In this document: piece by piece, positions 8,413 to 18,140 of the stretch | How the letters are laid out: the number at the start of each line of letters is the position of its first letter | Position numbering within the stretch: position 1 is the first letter of the stretch | The notes under the pieces: model-generated | Told to the model about the DNA's origin: nothing | Databases searched by the model: none | The model's input: only the letters and a program-made list of their open reading frames with translations | Assembly: GCF_004322855.1 (NCBI RefSeq) | Contig: NZ_CP036402.1 | Location: forward strand, 1,302,001 to 1,366,000 | Length of the DNA stretch: 64,000 nucleotides | Direction: 5' to 3' | Source: Egibacter rhizosphaerae | Lineage (GTDB): Bacteria; Actinomycetota; Nitriliruptoria; Euzebyales; Egibacteraceae | Translations under genes and position numbers: made by a program

Positions 8413-9696
8413 TCAGCTGAGGTCGCCGAGCTTGCGCTCGAGCACGGCACGTTCGCGGTAGTTCGCGCAGAGGTCGACGGCTCGGCTGAGCTCCGACCGG
8501 GCCTCCTCGGTCCGTCCGAGGCGGGTCAACAGCTCGCCGCGCACGCTCGGCAGAAGGTGGGAGCCAGCGAGCCGCTCGCTGCCGGCCAGGTCGTCGACGA
8601 CGGGCAGCGCGACGGCGGGCCCCAGCGCCATCGAGAGCGCCACGGCGCGGTTCAGCTCGACCACCGGGGAGGGCGCCAAACGTTCGAGCGCCTCGTACAG
8701 CACCACGATCCGCTCCCAGTCCGTGTCGTCGACCGAGGGGGCGACCGCGTGGCACTCGGCAATCGCAGCCTGCAGGCCGTACGCGCCAAGGCCCCGGCCC
8801 GCCCCCGCGGCGCGGGCAAGCGCGGCGCGACCACGCCCGATCGCGGCCCGGTCCCACCGTCGCCGGTCCTGGTCCTCGAGCAGCACCGGGTCGCCCTCGG
8901 GGCCGGTGCGGGCCGGGAACCGGGCGGCGGTCAGCTCGAGCAGCGCGAGCAGGCCGTGAACCTCGGGCTCGTCGGGGGCCAGGCGCGCGAGGACCCGCGC
9001 CATCCGCAGCGCCTCATGGGCGAGGTCGGGGCGAATCAGGTCGTCGCCGGACGTGGCCGTCGATCCCTCCGTGAAGACCAGGTAGACGACACTCAGTACC
9101 GAGCCCAGCCGCTCCCGGCGCTCCTCGGGCGGTGGCACCTCGAACGGGACCCGGGCGGCCGACAGGGTCTTCTTGGCTCGGGTGATCCGCGCCTGCACCG
9201 TCGCGGTGGGCACGAGGAACGCGCGGGCGATCTCGTCGCTGGTCAGGCCGCCGATGACCCGCAACGTGAGCGCGACCTGCGCCTCCGGCGACAGCGCCGG
9301 GTGACAGGCGGTGAACGCCAATGCCAGCACGTCGTCGTCGACCCGGTCCGGATCGAACAGCAACGCGCCCTCGGACGCCGCGCCCGAGGACGCCGGCGAC
9401 CCGCCCGAGGCGGCGCCGCCCTCGCCCAACTGGTGGGCGAGGGCGGCGTACCGCTCGTCGAGTGCGGCGCGACGCCGGAACGTGTCGATCGCCCGGCGCC
9501 GGCCCACGGTCGTCAGCCACCCGGCCGGGTTGTGCGGCACACCGTCGCGGGGCCAGGCCACCAGCGCCTCCGCCAGGGCCTCCTGGGCGACGTCCTCGGC
9601 CAGCGCGACGTCCCCGGTGTAGCGGGCCAGCGCCCCGACGATCCGGGCCGACTCAATCCGCCACACCGCGCCGACGACGTGCCGCGCGTCCCTCAC
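8413..9696 (-). CDS. ECF42-type RNA polymerase sigma factor with TPR-like C-terminal extension
   Basis: The frame opens further upstream, but the GTG at 9696 overlaps the stop of the YCII gene (GTGA) and starts the homologous region, giving 427 residues. Region 2 is visible in YTGDVALAEDVAQEALAEAL, and region 4 in LTSDEIARAFLVPTATVQAR. After about residue 180 comes a long helical, TPR-like extension (DUF6596 type) rather than a short end. Sigma factors of this ECF42 class carry that extension and sit beside DGPF/YCII genes, exactly as here; no anti-sigma gene is present. The extension probably controls activity. The regulon is unknown. Confidence 0.88.
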   Translation of the reverse strand: MRDARHVVGAVWRIESARIVGALARYTGDVALAEDVAQEALAEALVAWPRDGVPHNPAGWLTTVGRRRAIDTFRRRAALDERYAALAHQLGEGGAASGGSPASSGAASEGALLFDPDRVDDDVLALAFTACHPALSPEAQVALTLRVIGGLTSDEIARAFLVPTATVQARITRAKKTLSAARVPFEVPPPEERRERLGSVLSVVYLVFTEGSTATSGDDLIRPDLAHEALRMARVLARLAPDEPEVHGLLALLELTAARFPARTGPEGDPVLLEDQDRRRWDRAAIGRGRAALARAAGAGRGLGAYGLQAAIAECHAVAPSVDDTDWERIVVLYEALERLAPSPVVELNRAVALSMALGPAVALPVVDDLAGSERLAGSHLLPSVRGELLTRLGRTEEARSELSRAVDLCANYRERAVLERKLGDLS

Positions 9697-10112
9697 AGCT
9701 GGCCCGTGGCCTCCCGCCACGCCCGCTCCTTCCGGGTCCACTCGTTGTCCTGCGGGAACTCCTCGACGCTGTTGACCCGCCGGATCTCGAGCTTGCTTCC
9801 CGGGCCGGTCAACGGCGCCCGCTTGGCCCACTCGATCGCCTCGTCCTTGGAGGCGACGTCGACGATCCAGAAGCCGGTGAACAGCTCTTTGGTTTCCCCG
9901 TACGGCCCGTCGGTCACCACCGGCGGCTGCGACGAGTAGTCGACGACCACGCCCTCCGACGCATCATCGAGCCCCTCGGCCGCGACGAGGACCCCGGCCG
10001 AGATCATCTCCTGGTTGAACCGGCCCATCGCCTCGATGATCTCCTCGAAGTCGACGTGCTCGTAGGCCGCGAAGGTCTCGTCGGTCGCGCGCATGATCAG
10101 CATGTACTTCAC
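9693..10112 (-). CDS. YCII/DGPF-domain protein
   Basis: The 139-residue protein begins MKYMLIMRA, the usual start of YCII-related proteins, and contains the DGPY-GETKELF..FWIVDV motif of the DGPF subfamily. The fold is a ferredoxin-like alpha/beta barrel dimer; no catalytic role is established. Its stop overlaps the sigma-factor start by 4 bp, so the two are translated from one message. In ECF42 loci the DGPF proteins are the standard partners and often targets of the sigma factor. The ribosome site GAAGGAG lies upstream. Confidence 0.88.
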   Translation of the reverse strand: MKYMLIMRATDETFAAYEHVDFEEIIEAMGRFNQEMISAGVLVAAEGLDDASEGVVVDYSSQPPVVTDGPYGETKELFTGFWIVDVASKDEAIEWAKRAPLTGPGSKLEIRRVNSVEEFPQDNEWTRKERAWREATGQL

Positions 10113-10301
10113 GGTTCGCTCCTTCTGTCTCGGGGTCCCGCTCGGGACCCTCGCACCCCTAGGTCGAATGGTGGGACGTCCGAATCGACACCGTCGCGGG
10201 GAGATTTCTCGTCAGGACCGTGCGGGTCAGCGGCCGCGGCGGCCTTGCCGCCCCGCGGGCAGACTGAAGCCGTCTGGGAAGGTATCCGGCGGGAGGAACC
10301 C

Positions 10302-10672
10302 GTGAGCGAACAGCTGGCCGTCGCGGCCGCGCAGCCGCCGACGAGGCCCGAGGACCCCGAGTCCAACGCGCGAGCGCACGCCGCGGCGATCGCGCGTGCG
10401 CGCGCTCGTCTGGTGGTCTTCCCCGAGCTGTCCCTCACCGGCTACGACCTGGAGGCCGCACCGGTCCAGCCGGGCGACACGAGCCTGCGACCCGTCATCG
10501 AGGCTGGTGGCCGGTCCGGCGCGACCGCGCTCGTCGGCGCACCGGTGACCGAGGGCGGCCGCGCGTCGATCGCGATGCTCCGCGTCGAGGCTCACGGCGC
10601 GCAGGTGGCGTACCGCAAGCGCTGGCTCGGCGAGGAGGAAGCGGTCCGCTTCGACGGTGGCGCGAAGCGCAA
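10302..10672 (+). pseudogene. Truncated carbon-nitrogen hydrolase (nitrilase superfamily), N-terminal stump
   Basis: A GTG at 10302 with GGGAGG ahead starts a nitrilase-superfamily protein: EQLAVAAAQPPTRPEDPESN, the catalytic Glu in VVFPELSLTGYD, and the catalytic Lys in YRKRWLGEEEAVRF. The homology stops at RFDGGAK, before the region that would hold the catalytic Cys, so the protein could not be active. Beyond this point the same frame runs into sequence belonging to a different gene (restriction endonuclease), so a deletion has joined two unrelated genes. Confidence 0.75.
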
Positions 10673-10689
10673 CAGGGCAGCAGGCGCGC

Positions 10690-11584
10690 ACGCGATTCCC
10701 ACCGCGGTCGACCAGCTGCGCGTGTGGCGGCACGGGGATCAGCGTGCCCACACAAGCCCCTGCTGGTGCTGCTCATGCTGGGGCGTGTCCAGCGCGGCCA
10801 ACGCTTCGTTGCCTTCAGCGACATCGAGGACGAGTTGCGCGCGGCTGGCCGACTTCGGCCCGCCGCGCCGACACCACCATCCCGAGTTCCCGTTCTGGCA
10901 CTTGCGCAACGACGGGATCTGGGAGGTCGCCGACGCCGAGCCCCTGCGGAGCAGTAGACCGGCGCGACCCCCCGCTCTCACGCCTGCGCCCCATGCAGGC
11001 CGGGTTCCCCGAGGAGATCCACGAGCAGCTCACCGGGGACTCCTCGCTCGTCCACGAGGTCGCCGAACGACTGCTGGCCGCGCACCTCCCCCGCCTCACT
11101 TCATGAGGACGTCCTGCCCCGCGTAGAGCTCGAGCTCGTCGAGCCGCCAGGCGATCGTCGACATGATCCCGCGTTCCGTGTCGAGGTCCTGCGCGCCTAC
11201 GCCTACTGCTGCGCCGTGTGCGGCTACGACGGGAAGGTGGACACCACGCCGGTGGGATTGGACGCCGCACACGTGCGCTGGTGGGCCGCGGGCGGTCCCG
11301 ACACCCTGGACCACGGGCTCGCGCTGTGCGCCCTTCACCACAAGGCCCTCGACCTCGGCGTGCTCGGCATCAGCGAGGAGCACCGCATCCAGGTCTCGCG
11401 CGCCTTCCACGGCGGCCAGCGCGCCCAGGCACTGGTGGCATCGCTGGCCGGCCACCCACTGGCGCTGCCGCAGCCCGGCGCGCCGACGCTCAGCGAGATC
11501 CACCGCGGCTGGCACGCCCGCGAGGTCTTCCGCGAGCCACCCCGCCAGCTGGCCGCGGCGGCCGAGGCCGACTCGCCCCCCTAA
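10690..11584 (+). pseudogene. Frameshifted phosphorothioate-dependent HNH restriction endonuclease (SBD-HNH, McrA-like)
   Basis: Pieces of one protein lie in order but in different frames: VDQLRVWRHGDQRA, then HKPLLVLLMLGRVQRGQRFV (10751 on), then LADFGPPRRHHHPEFPFWHL with NDGIWEV, then GFPEEIHEQLTGDSSLVHEV, then an HNH part with CCAVCGYDG, GLDAAHVRWWAAGGPD and GLALCALHH ending at 11584. The first pieces match the sulfur-binding domain that reads phosphorothioated DNA; the last is a zinc-bound HNH nuclease as in ScoMcrA-type enzymes. At least four frameshifts (near 10748, 10840, 10950 and 11095) and loss of its own start make it inactive. No dnd genes are in the window. Confidence 0.75.
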
Positions 11585-12629
11585 GTCGTGGCAACTCGCG
11601 GTGATCGGCCACCGAGTGGCCACGCGGCCAGGCGTTCTCCCACAGCTTGGTGACCGCGGGGCACTTCTCGCCCAGAGCTCGTTGAAGTCGGCGAGGCGCT
11701 CGGTAGCGGCCTGCCCGCTGGGCGCGGTGTACACCGGCCGCAGATCGCGGGCCATCTTGTCCCAGTCGGCTCGTGACGCCAGCCGGAAGGTGTAGCCGAT
11801 GCAGGTGGCGGCACACACGTCTGGATGACCGCCAGCGGCCAGGTCGCCTCGATCGCTTCGGGCAGCCCTTTGAGGCCGTCGCACACGACGATGCAGACGT
11901 CCTCGGTGCGCGGTTCTCGGGTCTCGGTGAGCCCCTGCAGCCAGAACTACAGCGCCCATCGCCGCCCTGGCCGATCCAGATGCCTGCGGATGTCTCCGGT
12001 GCCCTCGGCGGTCATGCCGATGGCGGTGTCCGCGGGCCGGTTGGCCACCTGCCCGTCGCGGACCTCGGGCCACGACGCGCGCGATGAACACCGCGGCATA
12101 CACGCGCTCGAGCGGCCGGTTCAGCCAGTCGCCCACCTCCTCTCTTGATCCGGTCGGTGATCTTCGACACCGTCTCACGCGACACCTCGGCGCCGTACAC
12201 CTCCGCCAGATGGGCTTGCACCTCGCCGGGCGTCAGGCCCTTGGCCGATAGCGACAGCACCATCTCATCCACGCCCGACAGGCGCCGCTGGCGCTTCTTG
12301 ACCAGCTTGGGCTCGAACGAACCCTCCCGATCCCGCGGCACCTCCAGCGGAACCGGGCCAATCTCGGTCAGCACCGTCTTCGAGCGGATGCCGTTGCACG
12401 AGTTGCTGCCGTCGCGGCCTTCGACGGCGTGCTTGTCATAGCCCAGATGCTCCGACAACTCGGCCTCCGGGCCCGTCTCGAGCAGGTGCTTGGTCAACCC
12501 CGTCAGCACCCCGTCGGGGCCGACCAGGTCCAGGCCTTCTTCGCGAGCCTGCTCCACGAGGCGTTCGGCGACTTCGCGGTCCTCGTCCGAGCGCTCCCGC
12601 TCGGCATCATGTCCAGTGGCATCGGTCAT
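11585..12629 (-). mobile_element. Degenerate IS256-family transposase remnant
   Basis: The N-terminal 180 residues from the ATG at 12629 (ribosome site AAGGGA) are intact and match IS256 transposases: LTKHLLETGPEAELSEHLGY, KTVLTEIGPVPLEVPRDREG, LSAKGLTPGEVQAHLAEVYG. After TDRIK the frame shifts (near 12150). Later pieces, such as EEVGDWLNRPLERVYAAVFI, VCDGLKGLPEAIEATWPLAV and ASRADWDKMARDLRPVYTAP, are scattered over three frames. The residue expected to be the first catalytic Asp is lost (FIARVV instead of FIDAIV). The C-terminal 60 or so residues and one end are missing, and the remnant abuts the HNH pseudogene. No complete inverted-repeat pair was found. Dead element. Confidence 0.85.
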
Positions 12630-12831
12630 CAGCTGTCCCTTCCGGCCGAGCGGATAGCTCAGCCTGCCAGGTCAGCTCCGCTACACCCTTTAACGACACT
12701 TCCTTCAGTCAAGGCTTCTCGCCCATGGGCGGCCCGCGAGACGTTCGCTGTTCGAGACCGATGCCCGAAGGTTTCTCCCGCCGTACCAGGGGAACCCGTG
12801 GCACGGTTCGCAACCATCAGAGGGTCCCACC

Positions 12832-13518
12832 ATGACGTTCTCCATCGCCACTCACGATCCCCACAGCGGATGGTTCGCTGCGGGCGCGGTCACCGCCATG
12901 CCGGCTGTGGGCAAGCTGGTCACCCACGCGCGAGCAGGGGTGGGCGCCGCGTGCACCCAGGCCACGATCAACCCGTACCTGGCCATCGACGGCTTGGCGC
13001 AGCTCGCCGATGGGCGGCACGCGCAGCCGGTGTTGAAGGAGCTGGTCAGCGCTGATCCTGGTCGCGACTTCCGCCAGGCCGGGCTCGTCGACGGCCACGG
13101 TGGCGCGTGGGCGTGGACCGGCGAGCAAACCCCCCAGTGGGCCGGCCATCTGGTGCATCCCCACGTTGTCGTCCAAGGCAATCGGCTCGTGGGCCCCGAG
13201 ACGTTGGAGGCGACGCTCGAAGCATTCCAACAGCGTGACGGCCAAGTGCTCGCGCATCGCATCCTCGAGGCGCTGGCCGCCGGCGAGGCGACCGGGGCCG
13301 ACACGAAAGGTGCGTTGTCGGCCAACCTGACGGTGTTCGCCACCGAGGACTATCCCCTGTGGGATGTGCGCGTCGACCACACCGAGGATCCCGTAGCCGC
13401 GTTGCGCAGCCTGGTCGAGGAGTTCGACCAGGAACTCCTCCCCCAAGTCCGAAAGCTGCCCACCCGGGCTGACCCCATGGGCGAGGCCGCTCGCGAGCAG
13501 ACCGAATCGATCGGCTGA
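12832..13518 (+). CDS. DUF1028-family protein
   Basis: The 228-residue protein starts MTFSIATHDPHSGWFAAGAV and contains ARAGVGAACTQATINP and the AADPGRDFRQ..LVD-like segment (here SADPGRDFRQAGLVDGHG), which define DUF1028. The family has an Ntn-hydrolase-like fold, with the position after the initial beta strand acting as possible nucleophile; substrates are not known, although some members carry a peptidoglycan-binding domain (absent here). It lies between an IS256 wreck and a deleted oxidase gene but is itself intact, with codon use like the rest of the window. Confidence 0.85.
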   Translation: MTFSIATHDPHSGWFAAGAVTAMPAVGKLVTHARAGVGAACTQATINPYLAIDGLAQLADGRHAQPVLKELVSADPGRDFRQAGLVDGHGGAWAWTGEQTPQWAGHLVHPHVVVQGNRLVGPETLEATLEAFQQRDGQVLAHRILEALAAGEATGADTKGALSANLTVFATEDYPLWDVRVDHTEDPVAALRSLVEEFDQELLPQVRKLPTRADPMGEAAREQTESIG

Positions 13519-13565: not shown

Positions 13566-14635
13566 TCACGATCCCGCGCGCGACGGAAGGGCTCCGAGCA
13601 CCTCCGCCGCCGCGCGCTCGCCCGAGGAGACTGCCCCGTCCATGTAGCCGAACCAGGAGGTCGCGGTCTCGCTGCCCGCCCAGTGCAAACGGCCAACGGG
13701 CTGGCGCAGCGCGGGGCCGTGCTGGGTCCACGTTCCCGGGCAACCGCGTTGGCCTTGATCACGCTGCCCATCGGCAGCCGTTGGACGAGTTGATCCGTCA
13801 TCGCCGGCAGCGGCGGCTCGAAAGCGATGCGGCCGACCAAGGGAGGGGGGACCGCCACGACGACGCGTGAGGCCTGCACGGACTCCGCACCGTCTACCTC
13901 CACACGGACGCCGTCGGTGTCCTCGACGATCCGCCGGACCGGGGACTCCAGCTGCACCCGGCCCGGCAAGGAGGCGGCGATGCGATCGGCGAGCACCTGT
14001 GAGCCCCCGACGAAGCGCCGCTCGTGAATCCCCCCGGAACCTGCGAGCAGCCGCCTCGGCGACCCCGCGAACGCCACGTAGTAGGCCGCGTGCAAAAGCG
14101 ACACCGAGGCCGGCTCCGTGGACAGCACCAGCCGGCACGCGAGCGTGGCCAATGCCCGTCCCTGCGCGGTGCGCAGGGTGCGGTCGAACCAGGTCGCCAG
14201 CGTTTCCCCGTCCAAGCGAGCCGCGGCGGGTGCGAGCCATGGCGCGTCGACCGGGACCTGCCGCGCCATCCGCCCGAGCCTATGTGAGGCCCGCGCGAGA
14301 TCCGCGAGCACAGCGGGGCCGAACGGCGGCAACGAGCGGTGGAACCGGCGGATCTGCCCGCAGGTCTCCACGAGCGGCTCGCCGTAGTCGTAGCTGCGGA
14401 AGGTCTCCACGCCGAGCTCATCAGCCAGCGCGGCGATGCGCGTCTGCCCCGGACCGATCCACTGTCCCCCGGCTTCGAGGACCGTTCCGCCGGCGAGGAC
14501 GTCGTTGCGCACTCGCCCGCCGACCCGGTCGCGTGCTTCGAGCACCACCACGTCCCGCGCTTCCTGCGCGAGCCGACGGGCGGCGGTGAGGCCGGCGAGG
14601 CCCGCGCCCACGACGGCGACGTCACAGACGCGCAT
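13566..14635 (-). pseudogene. Flavin monoamine oxidase-like gene with internal deletion
   Basis: From the ATG at 14635 (GAAGGGGG ribosome site) the product has the FAD dinucleotide motif VVGAGLAGLTAARRL, the RVGGR loop, EAGGQWIGPGQ, and continues to [12 protein letters not shown]. There the frame changes (near 13740) and resumes as [20 protein letters not shown] followed by [20 protein letters not shown], the C-terminal FAD-binding end of the same family. About 100 residues between the two are missing, so an out-of-frame internal deletion has removed part of the substrate domain. The codable length (about 355) is well short of the usual 440-460. Without the deletion it would oxidise amines using FAD. 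Confidence 0.8.
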
Positions 14636-14715
14636 CCTCGTGCCCCCTTCGGATTGCGCCGACATGCCGGGGCCGGTGGGGCGGGAATCCTGCGCCCCGA
14701 CGAAGTGCTGACGGT

Positions 14716-15270
14716 TCAGTCGGCGAAGACGTTGCGGGCAGCGTCGCGGGCACGGTCGAAGGCTCCCACGATGGGGCCTGCGGCCGCGCGCGTCTCGGGC
14801 TGCTGGGGGGTTCCCGGATGCGGACGCGTGGGCCCGGAGTCACGCAGCTGCTGGAAGCGGCGCCCCATCTCGCGGCGTCGCTCAGCATCGACGTGCTCGC
14901 GGATCAACGGGAACTCGTCGCGCTCCTCGTGCCCAGCGTGCTCGACGACGTCGTCACGCAGACGGCCGAGCGACTCCATGAACTCATCGGACGTGGGGTC
15001 CATGTCGGCCATTTCGGCCAACAGATGCTCGGCCGAGTCCTCCTCGGCGAGCACCGCTTCGGCGACAGCCTGCCCGCTGGGCACGTCGTCGCGGACGGTG
15101 CGGTGCACCACTGCTTCCTCCGCCGCCTCGTGGCTGGCCAGGCGCGCGACGGTGTAGCGGAACAACTCCTCGCGCTCGTCCCGTGCCGCAGCCTCGAGCT
15201 CCTCGAACAACTCCCGGAACTCCCGATGCTCCTCGAGCAGCAATTCGACGATGTCGCGATCCTCAGCCAT
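14716..15270 (-). CDS. Hemerythrin/HHE-domain protein
   Basis: The ATG at 15270 has a GGAGG site 6 bp upstream, giving 184 residues. The four-helix HHE cation-binding layout is visible: DIVELLLEEHREFRELFEEL (His in helix 1), LFRYTVARLASHEAAEEAVV (HxxxE), and VVEHAGHEERDEFPLIREHV with the paired His/Glu ligands. Such cytoplasmic proteins bind a di-iron centre and sense or carry O2, NO or iron. The last 45 residues are a low-complexity, partly basic tail with a short amphipathic end (VGAFDRARDAARNVF). Isolated gene with no obvious partner. Confidence 0.85.
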   Translation of the reverse strand: MAEDRDIVELLLEEHREFRELFEELEAAARDEREELFRYTVARLASHEAAEEAVVHRTVRDDVPSGQAVAEAVLAEEDSAEHLLAEMADMDPTSDEFMESLGRLRDDVVEHAGHEERDEFPLIREHVDAERRREMGRRFQQLRDSGPTRPHPGTPQQPETRAAAGPIVGAFDRARDAARNVFAD

Positions 15271-15759
15271 GGTCAACCTCCGGTATTCGAGTCGGCGCGT
15301 CGGTGCAGACGCCGCCCCTGCCTACCCGCGCTGCGCGCGCCGAATCCCGGGATGTCGTTCCGCCTCCGGGTCCACGCACCGACGGTCGCGGGGATGCGTC
15401 AGCTCCGTCGCGTGCTGCGTGATCCCTGGGGAAGAACGCGTGCGGCCACGTCTGGGACGTACTGGGTCTGGCGGAGGGGTGTGATCAGGACCCGGTCGCC
15501 ACAACTCCAGGCTCGGCAGCGATCCGCACTGAGCGCGCCCTTCGAACGGCACGCTTTCCTTGTCGCCGCAGCTCGTCAGTTGACGGCGCCCCGGGGACCG
15601 CGCGCCATGGTCAGCCGCGGTGCGCGACGCGTCGCGTCGCGTCGCCTGCTCGGTCTGTTGGCCACCGCTCCTGTCTTCGGGGGCGTTTCTTGCCTTACTC
15701 CGCGGGCATCCGGAGGGAGCAAGAGGATCACGCATCCCCTCCATGGGAGGCGCGCCGCC
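15271..15759. other. Intergenic region with no recognised gene
   Basis: About 490 bp between the hemerythrin gene and the small His-rich ORF. All open frames here look like chance frames of GC-rich DNA with no recognisable motif. The stretch around 15620-15650 has a short CGTCGCGT-rich run. It presumably contains the hemerythrin promoter and upstream signals for the small ORF. Confidence 0.5.
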
Positions 15760-17258: not shown

Positions 17259-17432
17259 TCAGCCGCGCGACCGCGAACCCAAGACTAGAGTGAACCTTCC
17301 CCGCCACCTGAGCAACTTCAAGTGGCCCTCGCCGGTCGCGGCCACCGTGATCTGATCGATCTCGCGGCCGAGCTCGTCGACGGCGACCACAGTGTCGGTG
17401 CGGCTGTGCGCATCGATGCCAATCATGATCAT
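17259..17432 (-). mobile_element. IS110-family transposase N-terminal fragment
   Basis: A 57-codon frame starting at an ATG with GAAGGGG upstream encodes MIMIGIDAHSRTDTVVAVDE, LGREIDQITVAATGEGHLKL and LRW, the start of IS110 (DEDD) transposases with the first catalytic Asp in GIDAHS. Homology stops after LLRW, and the frame then runs through unrelated sequence to a TGA. More than 85 percent of the usual 350-400 residues are missing. Confidence 0.75.
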
Positions 17433-17646
17433 CAACAGCCCCTTCTCGTCGACCTACTCCCAGTGGTCACGGCCGAGGGGCATGCCTCAATCAAGACCTC
17501 GTCGTGCTCCCATCAAGCCACCCCAGCCGCCCGGGCTCGAAGCGCCGCAGATCCAGGACAAACCACCACCCACCGGGCGGGGCAGCGAAATAGCGAGCGA
17601 ACGCCCCGAGCCGCCCTTCAGCCTGACATTGAGGCGAAGTAGGCGG

Positions 17647-17871
17647 CCGCTCGTTTAGGATCTCACGCTCCTGCTCGAGCTGCTCGTTGCGCCGCTTGAG
17701 CTCGGTGTTCTCGGTCTGCAGCCGCTCGCGCTCGTCGCTGGACAGCCCCTCGCGCTCGCCCGCGTCGATCTCGGCCTGCCGGCGCCAGTCGCGGATCGCC
17801 TGCGCCGAACAACCCAGGTCCTGCGCCGCCTGCGCTGGGGTCATGCCCATCTCGGTGACCAGCCGCAGCGC
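17647..17871 (-). mobile_element. IS3-family OrfA fragment
   Basis: Within a longer open frame, this segment encodes ALRLVTEMGMTPAQAAQDLG, CSAQAIRDWRRQAEIDAGER and the coiled-coil RLQTENTELKRRNEQLEQER followed by EILN, which is the helix-turn-helix and leucine-zipper part of IS3 OrfA. The first 15 or so residues and the OrfA/OrfB junction are lost. The frame on either side is unrelated. Confidence 0.75.
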
Positions 17872-17887
17872 CGCTGGCCCACCCGCC

Positions 17888-18018
17888 AGGCCGCCCGCAC
17901 CGCCGTGTACACCTACATCGAGACCTTCTACAACCGCCGCCGACGCCACTCCACCATCCACTACCTGACCCCACTGGAGTACGAACAACCGCAGCCACCT
18001 ATCGTGGCCGCGGCATAA
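17888..18018 (+). mobile_element. IS3-family OrfB (DDE integrase) C-terminal fragment
   Basis: Read on the plus strand this gives TAVYTYIETFYNRRRRHSTI followed by HYLTPLEYEQ and a TAA stop at 18016-18018. That is the characteristic end of IS3 OrfB (YIE.FYNRRRRHS..GYL.P..FE) including the last catalytic Glu. It points away from the adjoining OrfA fragment on the other strand, so the two are pieces brought together by rearrangement, not one element. Confidence 0.75.
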
Positions 18019-18140
18019 CCCACCCGTGTCCGTCACACCAGGTCAACTCCATCGTGTCCTCGAGGTCGGGAGCGCACTCCCCACCCGCCCCGCCCACCCC
18101 CGGTCAGGCGCCAGCGCGGTCTGCTACCGTGGCCTCGTCC

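What the first reader, a model, noticed from the sequence alone, without database searches (positions are those of the whole stretch)
10302..11584. Nitrilase stump fused to a ruined phosphorothioate-dependent restriction enzyme
Seen: nitrilase homology ends at RFDGGAK without the catalytic Cys region, and within 25 bp the same frame enters VDQLRVW..., the start of an SBD-HNH protein. That protein is then spread over several frames but keeps all its motifs (HPEFPFW, CAVCGYDG, LDAAHVRWW). Known: such enzymes cut DNA carrying dnd phosphorothioate. Decay could reflect acquisition of, or conflict with, a modification system, or loss of need for it.
Basis: partly seen in the sequence, partly recalled or inferred. 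Interest (0 to 1): 0.5.

Follow-up and report, generated by a model that had tools for sequence, protein, structure and literature searches.

The report
Dead sulfur-DNA restriction gene beside IS wreckage
A gene for a known kind of enzyme that cuts sulfur-marked DNA has been broken in several places and joined to the front of a broken nitrilase gene, in a stretch of decaying genes and dead transposons; it looks like an ordinary pseudogene, and the searches made found no sulfur-marking system that would explain its loss.

Summary
A GTG-started frame at 10302 matches the N-terminal part of a carbon-nitrogen hydrolase (nitrilase superfamily) to about 10661 and stops short of the catalytic-Cys region. 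The same frame enters the start of an SBD-HNH phosphorothioate-dependent restriction enzyme (NF045808) at about 10695-10704. The enzyme then runs through four frame changes to 11584, has no start codon of its own and no in-frame stop, and is 53-55% identical to three intact homologues.
Sequencing error is an unlikely cause: 4 frame-change calls in 344 kb of sampled coding DNA of the same genome (detector sensitivity about two thirds); the HNH asparagine, N in 80 of 80 homologous loci, is H here; the nearby amine oxidase has lost about 105 codons; the IS256-type remnant beside the enzyme is 11% diverged and broken; more IS fragments lie at 17.3-18.0 kb.
Searches of the genome found no second SBD-HNH gene, no DndC, no DUF4007 protein and one PAPS-reductase-family gene, which looks like cysD. 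'Conflict with or acquisition of a PT system' is therefore unsupported; local decay suffices. Ordinary pseudogene of a known family; low interest.

The parts
10302..10661 (+). N-terminal stump of a carbon-nitrogen hydrolase (nitrilase superfamily); catalytic-Cys region and the rest absent
   Evidence: PF00795 E 3.4e-07; 52% identity to a 297-aa relative, ending at stump residue 120
10662..10703 (+). junction, 33-42 bp without assigned homology; the reading frame passes through; no start codon in this frame
10704..10745 (+). SBD start in the nitrilase frame (AVDQLRVWRHGDQR); the enzyme's own start codon is missing
10748..10845 (+). SBD continued in a second frame (PHKPLLVLL...; His and Lys at the H116/R117 positions of ScoMcrA)
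10854..10956 (+). SBD continued, back in the first frame (HPEFPFWHL...; Pro kept at the P165 position, Phe at the Y164 position)
10957..11094 (+). part between SBD and HNH, in a third frame
11099..11584 (+). rest of the middle part, HNH domain and C-terminus to TAA, in the second frame; the HNH Asn codon (11312-11314) encodes His
   Evidence: NF045808 179-284, E 1.9e-37; N in 80 of 80 homologous loci
11622..12699 (-). remnant of an IS256/Mutator-type element (transposase frame broken); 955 matches, 120 mismatches, 9 single-base gaps against another copy in the genome
   Evidence: PF00872 E 2.4e-32
13569..14665 (-). flavin amine oxidase with an internal deletion: profile 1-293 in one frame, then 399-443 in another with almost no DNA between
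   Evidence: PF01593
17265..18042 (.). fragments of IS110-type and IS3-type transposases
   Evidence: PF01548 E 0.003 (below Pfam's cut-off), PF01527 E 4.2e-07, PF13333 E 3.2e-07

Best explanation
This is a true, probably recently inactivated pseudogene of an SBD-HNH (type IV, phosphorothioate-dependent) restriction endonuclease. The ancestor would have bound the sulfur of incoming Dnd/Ssp-type modified DNA with its N-terminal sulfur-binding domain and cut nearby with its C-terminal HNH domain. A deletion most likely removed the nitrilase C-terminus and the enzyme's start codon and so joined the two genes in frame. At least four small frame-changing indels and a change of the HNH Asn followed or accompanied it. 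The locus lies in a stretch of decay (10.3-14.7 kb, with intact genes in between, and more IS fragments at 17.3-18.0 kb). No functional product is expected. Shown: the anatomy, the frame changes, the N-to-H change, the damaged neighbours, and no match for the writers searched. Inferred: the order of events, the deletion as the joining event, the recency and the loss of activity.
For: NF045808 matches in the right order spread over frames; four frame changes against each of three intact homologues. HNH Asn is N in 80 of 80 homologous loci; each of the 80 gives a single-frame match at E 1e-10, and the stops in 12 of them all lie at query residue 302 or beyond, apart from one at residue 14 in L146. 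Background: 4 frame-change calls (labelled FS, no stop nearby) in 343,696 coding bases of 400 kb sampled from the same genome. Neighbouring genes carry damage that sequencing indels do not make: about 105 codons lost from the amine oxidase and 120 substitutions between two IS copies. The end branch of the broken protein is 0.65 against a median of 0.57, so little extra change since inactivation.
Against: No in-frame stop, and of 53 columns conserved at 90% or more only three show a real change; three further departures are at a frame join or residues I left out beside one. Small indels near C runs could also be sequencing errors. The detector is imperfect: with the FS label it finds 65 of 99 planted single deletions (92 of 99 if any frame change counts), and in planted sets of four it labels 1.5 on average; here it labelled one, so the count of four comes from homology and is not like-for-like with the background count. 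78 further frame changes in the controls lie beside a stop and were taken as gene ends, not examined one by one. Control stretch L029 also has two calls within 0.9 kb.
Confidence: 0.9

Rival explanations
1. Local sequencing or assembly errors broke an intact gene; the real gene is an active restriction enzyme, perhaps with a fused or separate N-terminus.
For: Four small frame changes without any stop codon and with most conserved residues intact; C-rich runs at several of the places.
Against: Background about 1.2e-5 FS calls per coding base: expected 0.01 in 860 bp, P(>=4) 4e-10, and 4e-6 at ten times that rate, which more than covers the detector's missed third; this assumes errors spread evenly. 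The missing start and nitrilase C-terminus, the HNH Asn change and the deletion in a neighbour are not indel errors.
Confidence: 0.07
2. The gene was inactivated specifically because the lineage acquired a PT modification system (self-restriction conflict).
For: In the literature dnd clusters lie beside SBD-HNH genes in under 3.6% of cases (passages of PMC7461809), so a conflict would be harmful.
Against: No DndC in the genome or 60 relatives; no DUF4007 in the genome; its single PAPS-reductase-family gene looks like cysD. Unrelated neighbours are decayed too.
Confidence: 0.03
3. A remnant frame is still useful: the nitrilase-SBD fusion frame or the 122-aa HNH-only frame (GTG at 11216) makes a working protein.
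For: The frames are open; SprMcrA without its SBD was reported to nick non-specifically (passage of PMC7461809).
Against: The fusion frame holds only pieces of the SBD in frame and no HNH; the HNH-only frame carries H for the N found in 80 of 80 loci.
Confidence: 0.02

Closest known systems
NCBIfam NF045808, phosphorothioated DNA-binding restriction endonuclease (SBD-HNH; SprMcrA, EcoWI and Bsp305I are described as such in PMC7461809)
   Same: Domain order SBD then HNH, sulfur-cavity His/Lys/Pro, Cys pairs and the flanking HNH His residues
   Different: No own start, four frame changes, HNH Asn replaced by His, N-terminus joined to a nitrilase stump
ScoMcrA (SBD-SRA-HNH; PDB 5zmm, 5zmo)
   Same: SBD similarity (and a weak HNH match) of an intact relative of this gene, the G009 protein (phmmer E 1e-13)
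   Different: ScoMcrA has an SRA domain between SBD and HNH; the relatives of this gene are too short for one (282-317 aa); the copy here is broken
Carbon-nitrogen hydrolase / nitrilase superfamily (PF00795)
   Same: N-terminal about 120 residues, 52% identical to a 297-aa relative
   Different: Catalytic-Cys region and C-terminus missing

Membership tests
SBD-HNH PT-dependent restriction endonuclease (NF045808) | Sequence match to the family profile | tested here: met
   Best single stretch 175.1 bits, 197.4 bits with its neighbour in the frame, cut-off 180; pieces in order
SBD-HNH PT-dependent restriction endonuclease (NF045808) | Sulfur-cavity residues (ScoMcrA H116, R/K117, P165; Y164 variable) | tested here: met
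   H, K and P present; F at the Y164 position, as in 3 of the 79 loci scored there; roles from passages of PMC6224610
SBD-HNH PT-dependent restriction endonuclease (NF045808) | HNH catalytic triad H-N-H | tested here: not met
   First His and the C..HH His present; the middle Asn (N in 80 of 80 loci) is His
SBD-HNH PT-dependent restriction endonuclease (NF045808) | One open reading frame with a start codon | tested here: not met
   Four frame changes, no start
SBD-HNH PT-dependent restriction endonuclease (NF045808) | PT-dependent DNA cleavage | not testable with these tools
   needs the protein
SBD-HNH PT-dependent restriction endonuclease (NF045808) | Host without its own PT writer (typical, not strict) | tested here: inconclusive
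   No DndC, no DUF4007, one PAPS-reductase-family gene that looks like cysD; other dnd and ssp genes not searched, SspB = DUF4007 recalled, plasmids not held
Carbon-nitrogen hydrolase (nitrilase) | Glu-Lys-Cys catalytic set | tested here: not met
   The alignment to the intact relative ends before its GICKD Cys region; the catalytic set itself is recalled
IS256/Mutator-type insertion sequence (11622-12699) | Intact transposase frame | tested here: not met
   The 205-aa frame matches only positions 11-145 of the 379-position profile; indels against the other copy

The most novel reading that the evidence does not exclude
The enzyme was lost recently because a PT writer (dnd or ssp), perhaps plasmid-borne, passed through the lineage and selected against PT-dependent restriction, and was itself lost later; the HNH Asn change would then be a second hit against toxic residual nicking.
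Probability: 0.04. Interest if true: 0.4.

Novelty: new member of a known kind. Interest (0 to 1): 0.08.

Why it matters
It matters little by itself: it documents a dead copy of a type IV, PT-dependent restriction enzyme in a bacterium that appears related to Egibacter, where four other genomes of the class hold copies above the family's cut-off in open frames. Its practical use is as a caution: the nitrilase-SBD open frame could be annotated as a fusion protein, and the strain should not be assumed to restrict PT-modified DNA through this gene.

Tried and rejected
First coding model: self-trained on the longest open frames, it put known plus-strand genes on the minus strand and was discarded. 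It was retrained from five window genes, one of which I gave out of frame (2 stops), then iterated over the 20 control stretches to 291,789 bases of training frames. The 20 stretches thus served both for training and for the background count.

Detector sensitivity: one search counted a planted deletion as seen if any frame change was called nearby (94 of 100). The background count uses only changes labelled FS, so I repeated the test with that label: 65 of 99 (92 of 99 for any change).

Nitrilase linkage elsewhere: tblastn of the G044 nitrilase against the 80 SBD-HNH loci (3.2 to about 13 kb each) gave nothing at E 1e-3. The same search finds the window stump at E 5e-30 but an intact, more distant CN_hydrolase of the same genome (L048) only at E 0.086, so only close relatives of this nitrilase are excluded there. 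A search for the nitrilase C-terminus in the pieces of the genome then held (not the whole genome) found nothing at E 1, with the same limit. Of 61 genomes searched with the stump 10 match, own included, and apart from own only G044 strongly (51%).

Second copy: the only other NF045808 match in the genome is at 2237483-2237857 (50.9 bits, profile 157-280); it lies in a 608-aa open frame in which I found no SBD match. It is not counted as a second SBD-HNH enzyme.

Junction repeats: those found in 10150-13050 are short and imperfect; none marks the junction as an IS end. PADLOC gives two HNH models for the HNH piece and nothing for the fusion frame.

Conserved-column count: I took 40 of the 80 loci, 9 failed my frame-picking rule, 31 were used; the read-through track left out a few residues at joins, which accounts for two of the six departures. 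redid the key positions on the 80 loci (79 or 80 scored per position).

Papers: passages only of PMC6224610, PMC7461809 and PMC9646914; search listings only for the rest. I saw no paper on this locus in those three listings.

Full report
Observation. The frame that opens with GTG at 10302 matches the N-terminal part of the carbon-nitrogen hydrolase family (PF00795, E 3.4e-07, profile 2-63 of 256). Against the best relative found (a 297-aa frame in G044) the match is 52% over residues 5-120 and stops at RFDGG, window 10661; the relative goes on through its GICKD region (catalytic Cys, recalled), which is absent here. In the same frame NF045808 (phosphorothioated DNA-binding restriction endonuclease) begins at residue 132, about 10695. 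Alignments to single homologues begin at 10716, 10656 and 10704; the one from 10656 starts with a chance-like stretch, so I take 10704, AVDQL, as the start. There is no start codon in this frame between the two parts.

The enzyme is broken in a simple way. A frameshift-aware alignment to three intact homologues gives four frame changes each time, in nearly the same places (20-bp bins 10740; 10820 or 10840; 10920, 10940 or 10960; 11080), no in-frame stop, and 53-55% identity: 153 of 279, 160 of 301 and 151 of 279 aligned residues. The gene ends at the TAA at 11582-11584.

Is the breakage real? I built a codon-frame model of this genome and ran it on 20 evenly spaced 20-kb stretches (400 kb of 4.64 Mb). 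It called 4 frame changes without a stop nearby in 343,696 coding bases: two in L029, one in L037, one in L040, none in the other 17. 78 further frame changes lie beside a stop and were taken as gene ends. With the FS label the model finds 65 of 99 planted single-base deletions, and 92 of 99 if any frame change counts (with the laxer rule, gave 94 of 100). At the observed rate 0.01 events are expected in 860 bp and four have probability 4e-10, or 4e-6 at ten times the rate, which more than covers the missed third; this assumes evenly spread errors. A caveat: the model labelled only one of the four changes here, because the others fall in gaps between its coding segments. In 99 planted sets of four deletions 110 bp apart it labelled 1.5 per set on average and at least one in 70. 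So four is a homology count set against a model count. Over the whole window the model called 3 in 52,762 coding bases: 10750 (this gene), 11820 (the IS remnant) and 31269.

Independent signs of decay. The middle residue of the HNH motif is Asn in 80 of 80 homologous loci and His here (codon 11312-11314); the scan pattern allowed H at this place, so the set was not selected against it. The Arg of the R-D-P motif (R in 77 of the 79 loci scored) is His here. The amine oxidase at 13.57-14.67 kb (minus strand) has profile positions 1-293 in one frame and 399-443 in another with almost no DNA between, a loss of about 105 codons. The IS256/Mutator-type remnant directly 3' of the gene (11622-12699) differs from another copy at G000:C1:1891.9-1893.0 kb by 120 mismatches and 9 single-base gaps, with 955 matches; the longest transposase frame of that copy is 267 aa, so it is apparently broken too. 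IS110-like and IS3-like fragments lie at 17.3-18.0 kb (the IS110 match is below Pfam's cut-off). Sequencing indels do not make substitutions or 105-codon deletions, so a decaying stretch is the simpler reading. Genes with near full-length Pfam matches lie in and around it: DUF1028 (12832-13518), hemerythrin (14716-15276) and YCII (9693-10112).

Age. In a tree of 32 proteins the end branch of the broken copy is 0.65 changes per column against a median of 0.57. Of 53 columns conserved at 90% or more in 31 intact homologues, 47 are unchanged; of the six departures one is a join, two are residues that my track left out beside a join, and three are real changes (F to L, R to H, N to H). The intact sequences depart at 0-7 of these columns. 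The protein therefore looks as if it was under constraint until recently; this is inference.

Relatives. Among 66 genomes of the class, own included, 36 match NF045808 at E 0.001 (many by the HNH part only) and 5 reach its cut-off: own, G047, G009, G001 and G029; G018 holds a copy that appears split between two contig ends. The 80 loci each give one single-frame match, with stops in 12 of them only at residue 302 or beyond apart from one at residue 14 in L146; one locus (L103) is cut by a contig end. This set was chosen by strength of match, so it is biased towards intact genes.

The proposed cause. No DndC in the genome or 60 relatives (no control genome reached the cut-off there); in 296 genomes of the phylum 5 match, one over the cut-off (G305, 637.6 bits), so the model works. 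No DUF4007 in the genome (where the controls were silent); in the phylum 6 of 296 genomes have it, own not among them. DUF4007 as SspB is recalled; PMC9646914 did not confirm it. One PAPS-reductase-family gene, followed directly by a 429-aa frame that looks like CysN (naming recalled), so probably sulfate assimilation. DndB, DndD, DndE, SspC and SspE were not searched. The genome held is one contig at 95.7% completeness, so a plasmid could be missing. A PT-conflict explanation is thus unsupported, and unnecessary given the decayed neighbours.

Known context. SBD-HNH enzymes and the sulfur cavity are described in PMC6224610 and PMC7461809 (passages read). Here His, Lys and Pro of the cavity are kept and the variable Tyr position is Phe; the HNH Asn is lost. 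As a sequence this is a dead member of a known family; as an enzyme it is expected to be inactive.

Verdict. Ordinary pseudogene; interest 0.08.

Noticed in passing
window 13569-14665 (-): Flavin amine oxidase with an internal deletion of about 105 codons and a frame change (PF01593 1-293 then 399-443).
   Followed up: yes
window 11622-12699 and G000:C1:1891920-1892993: Two diverged copies of an IS256/Mutator-type element; the window copy has a broken transposase frame and the other apparently too.
   Followed up: partly
window 17265-18042: Fragments of IS110-type and IS3-type transposases on both strands, a small IS graveyard.
   Followed up: partly
window about 31269 (+): The coding frame changes without a stop inside a gene of unassigned family starting near 30.6 kb; possible pseudogene.
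   Followed up: no
G000:C1:2237483-2237857 (L091:4065-5888): A 608-aa open frame with a C-terminal HNH domain related to NF045808 positions 157-280 and no assigned N-terminal domain; possibly another restriction-type nuclease.
   Followed up: partly
G009:C207:1368-1718 with 1792-2634; G018:C38: In G009 a second HNH protein, matching NF045808 160-277, lies directly upstream of the SBD-HNH gene; G018, of the same genus, has a similar pair of matches on contig C38.
   Followed up: no
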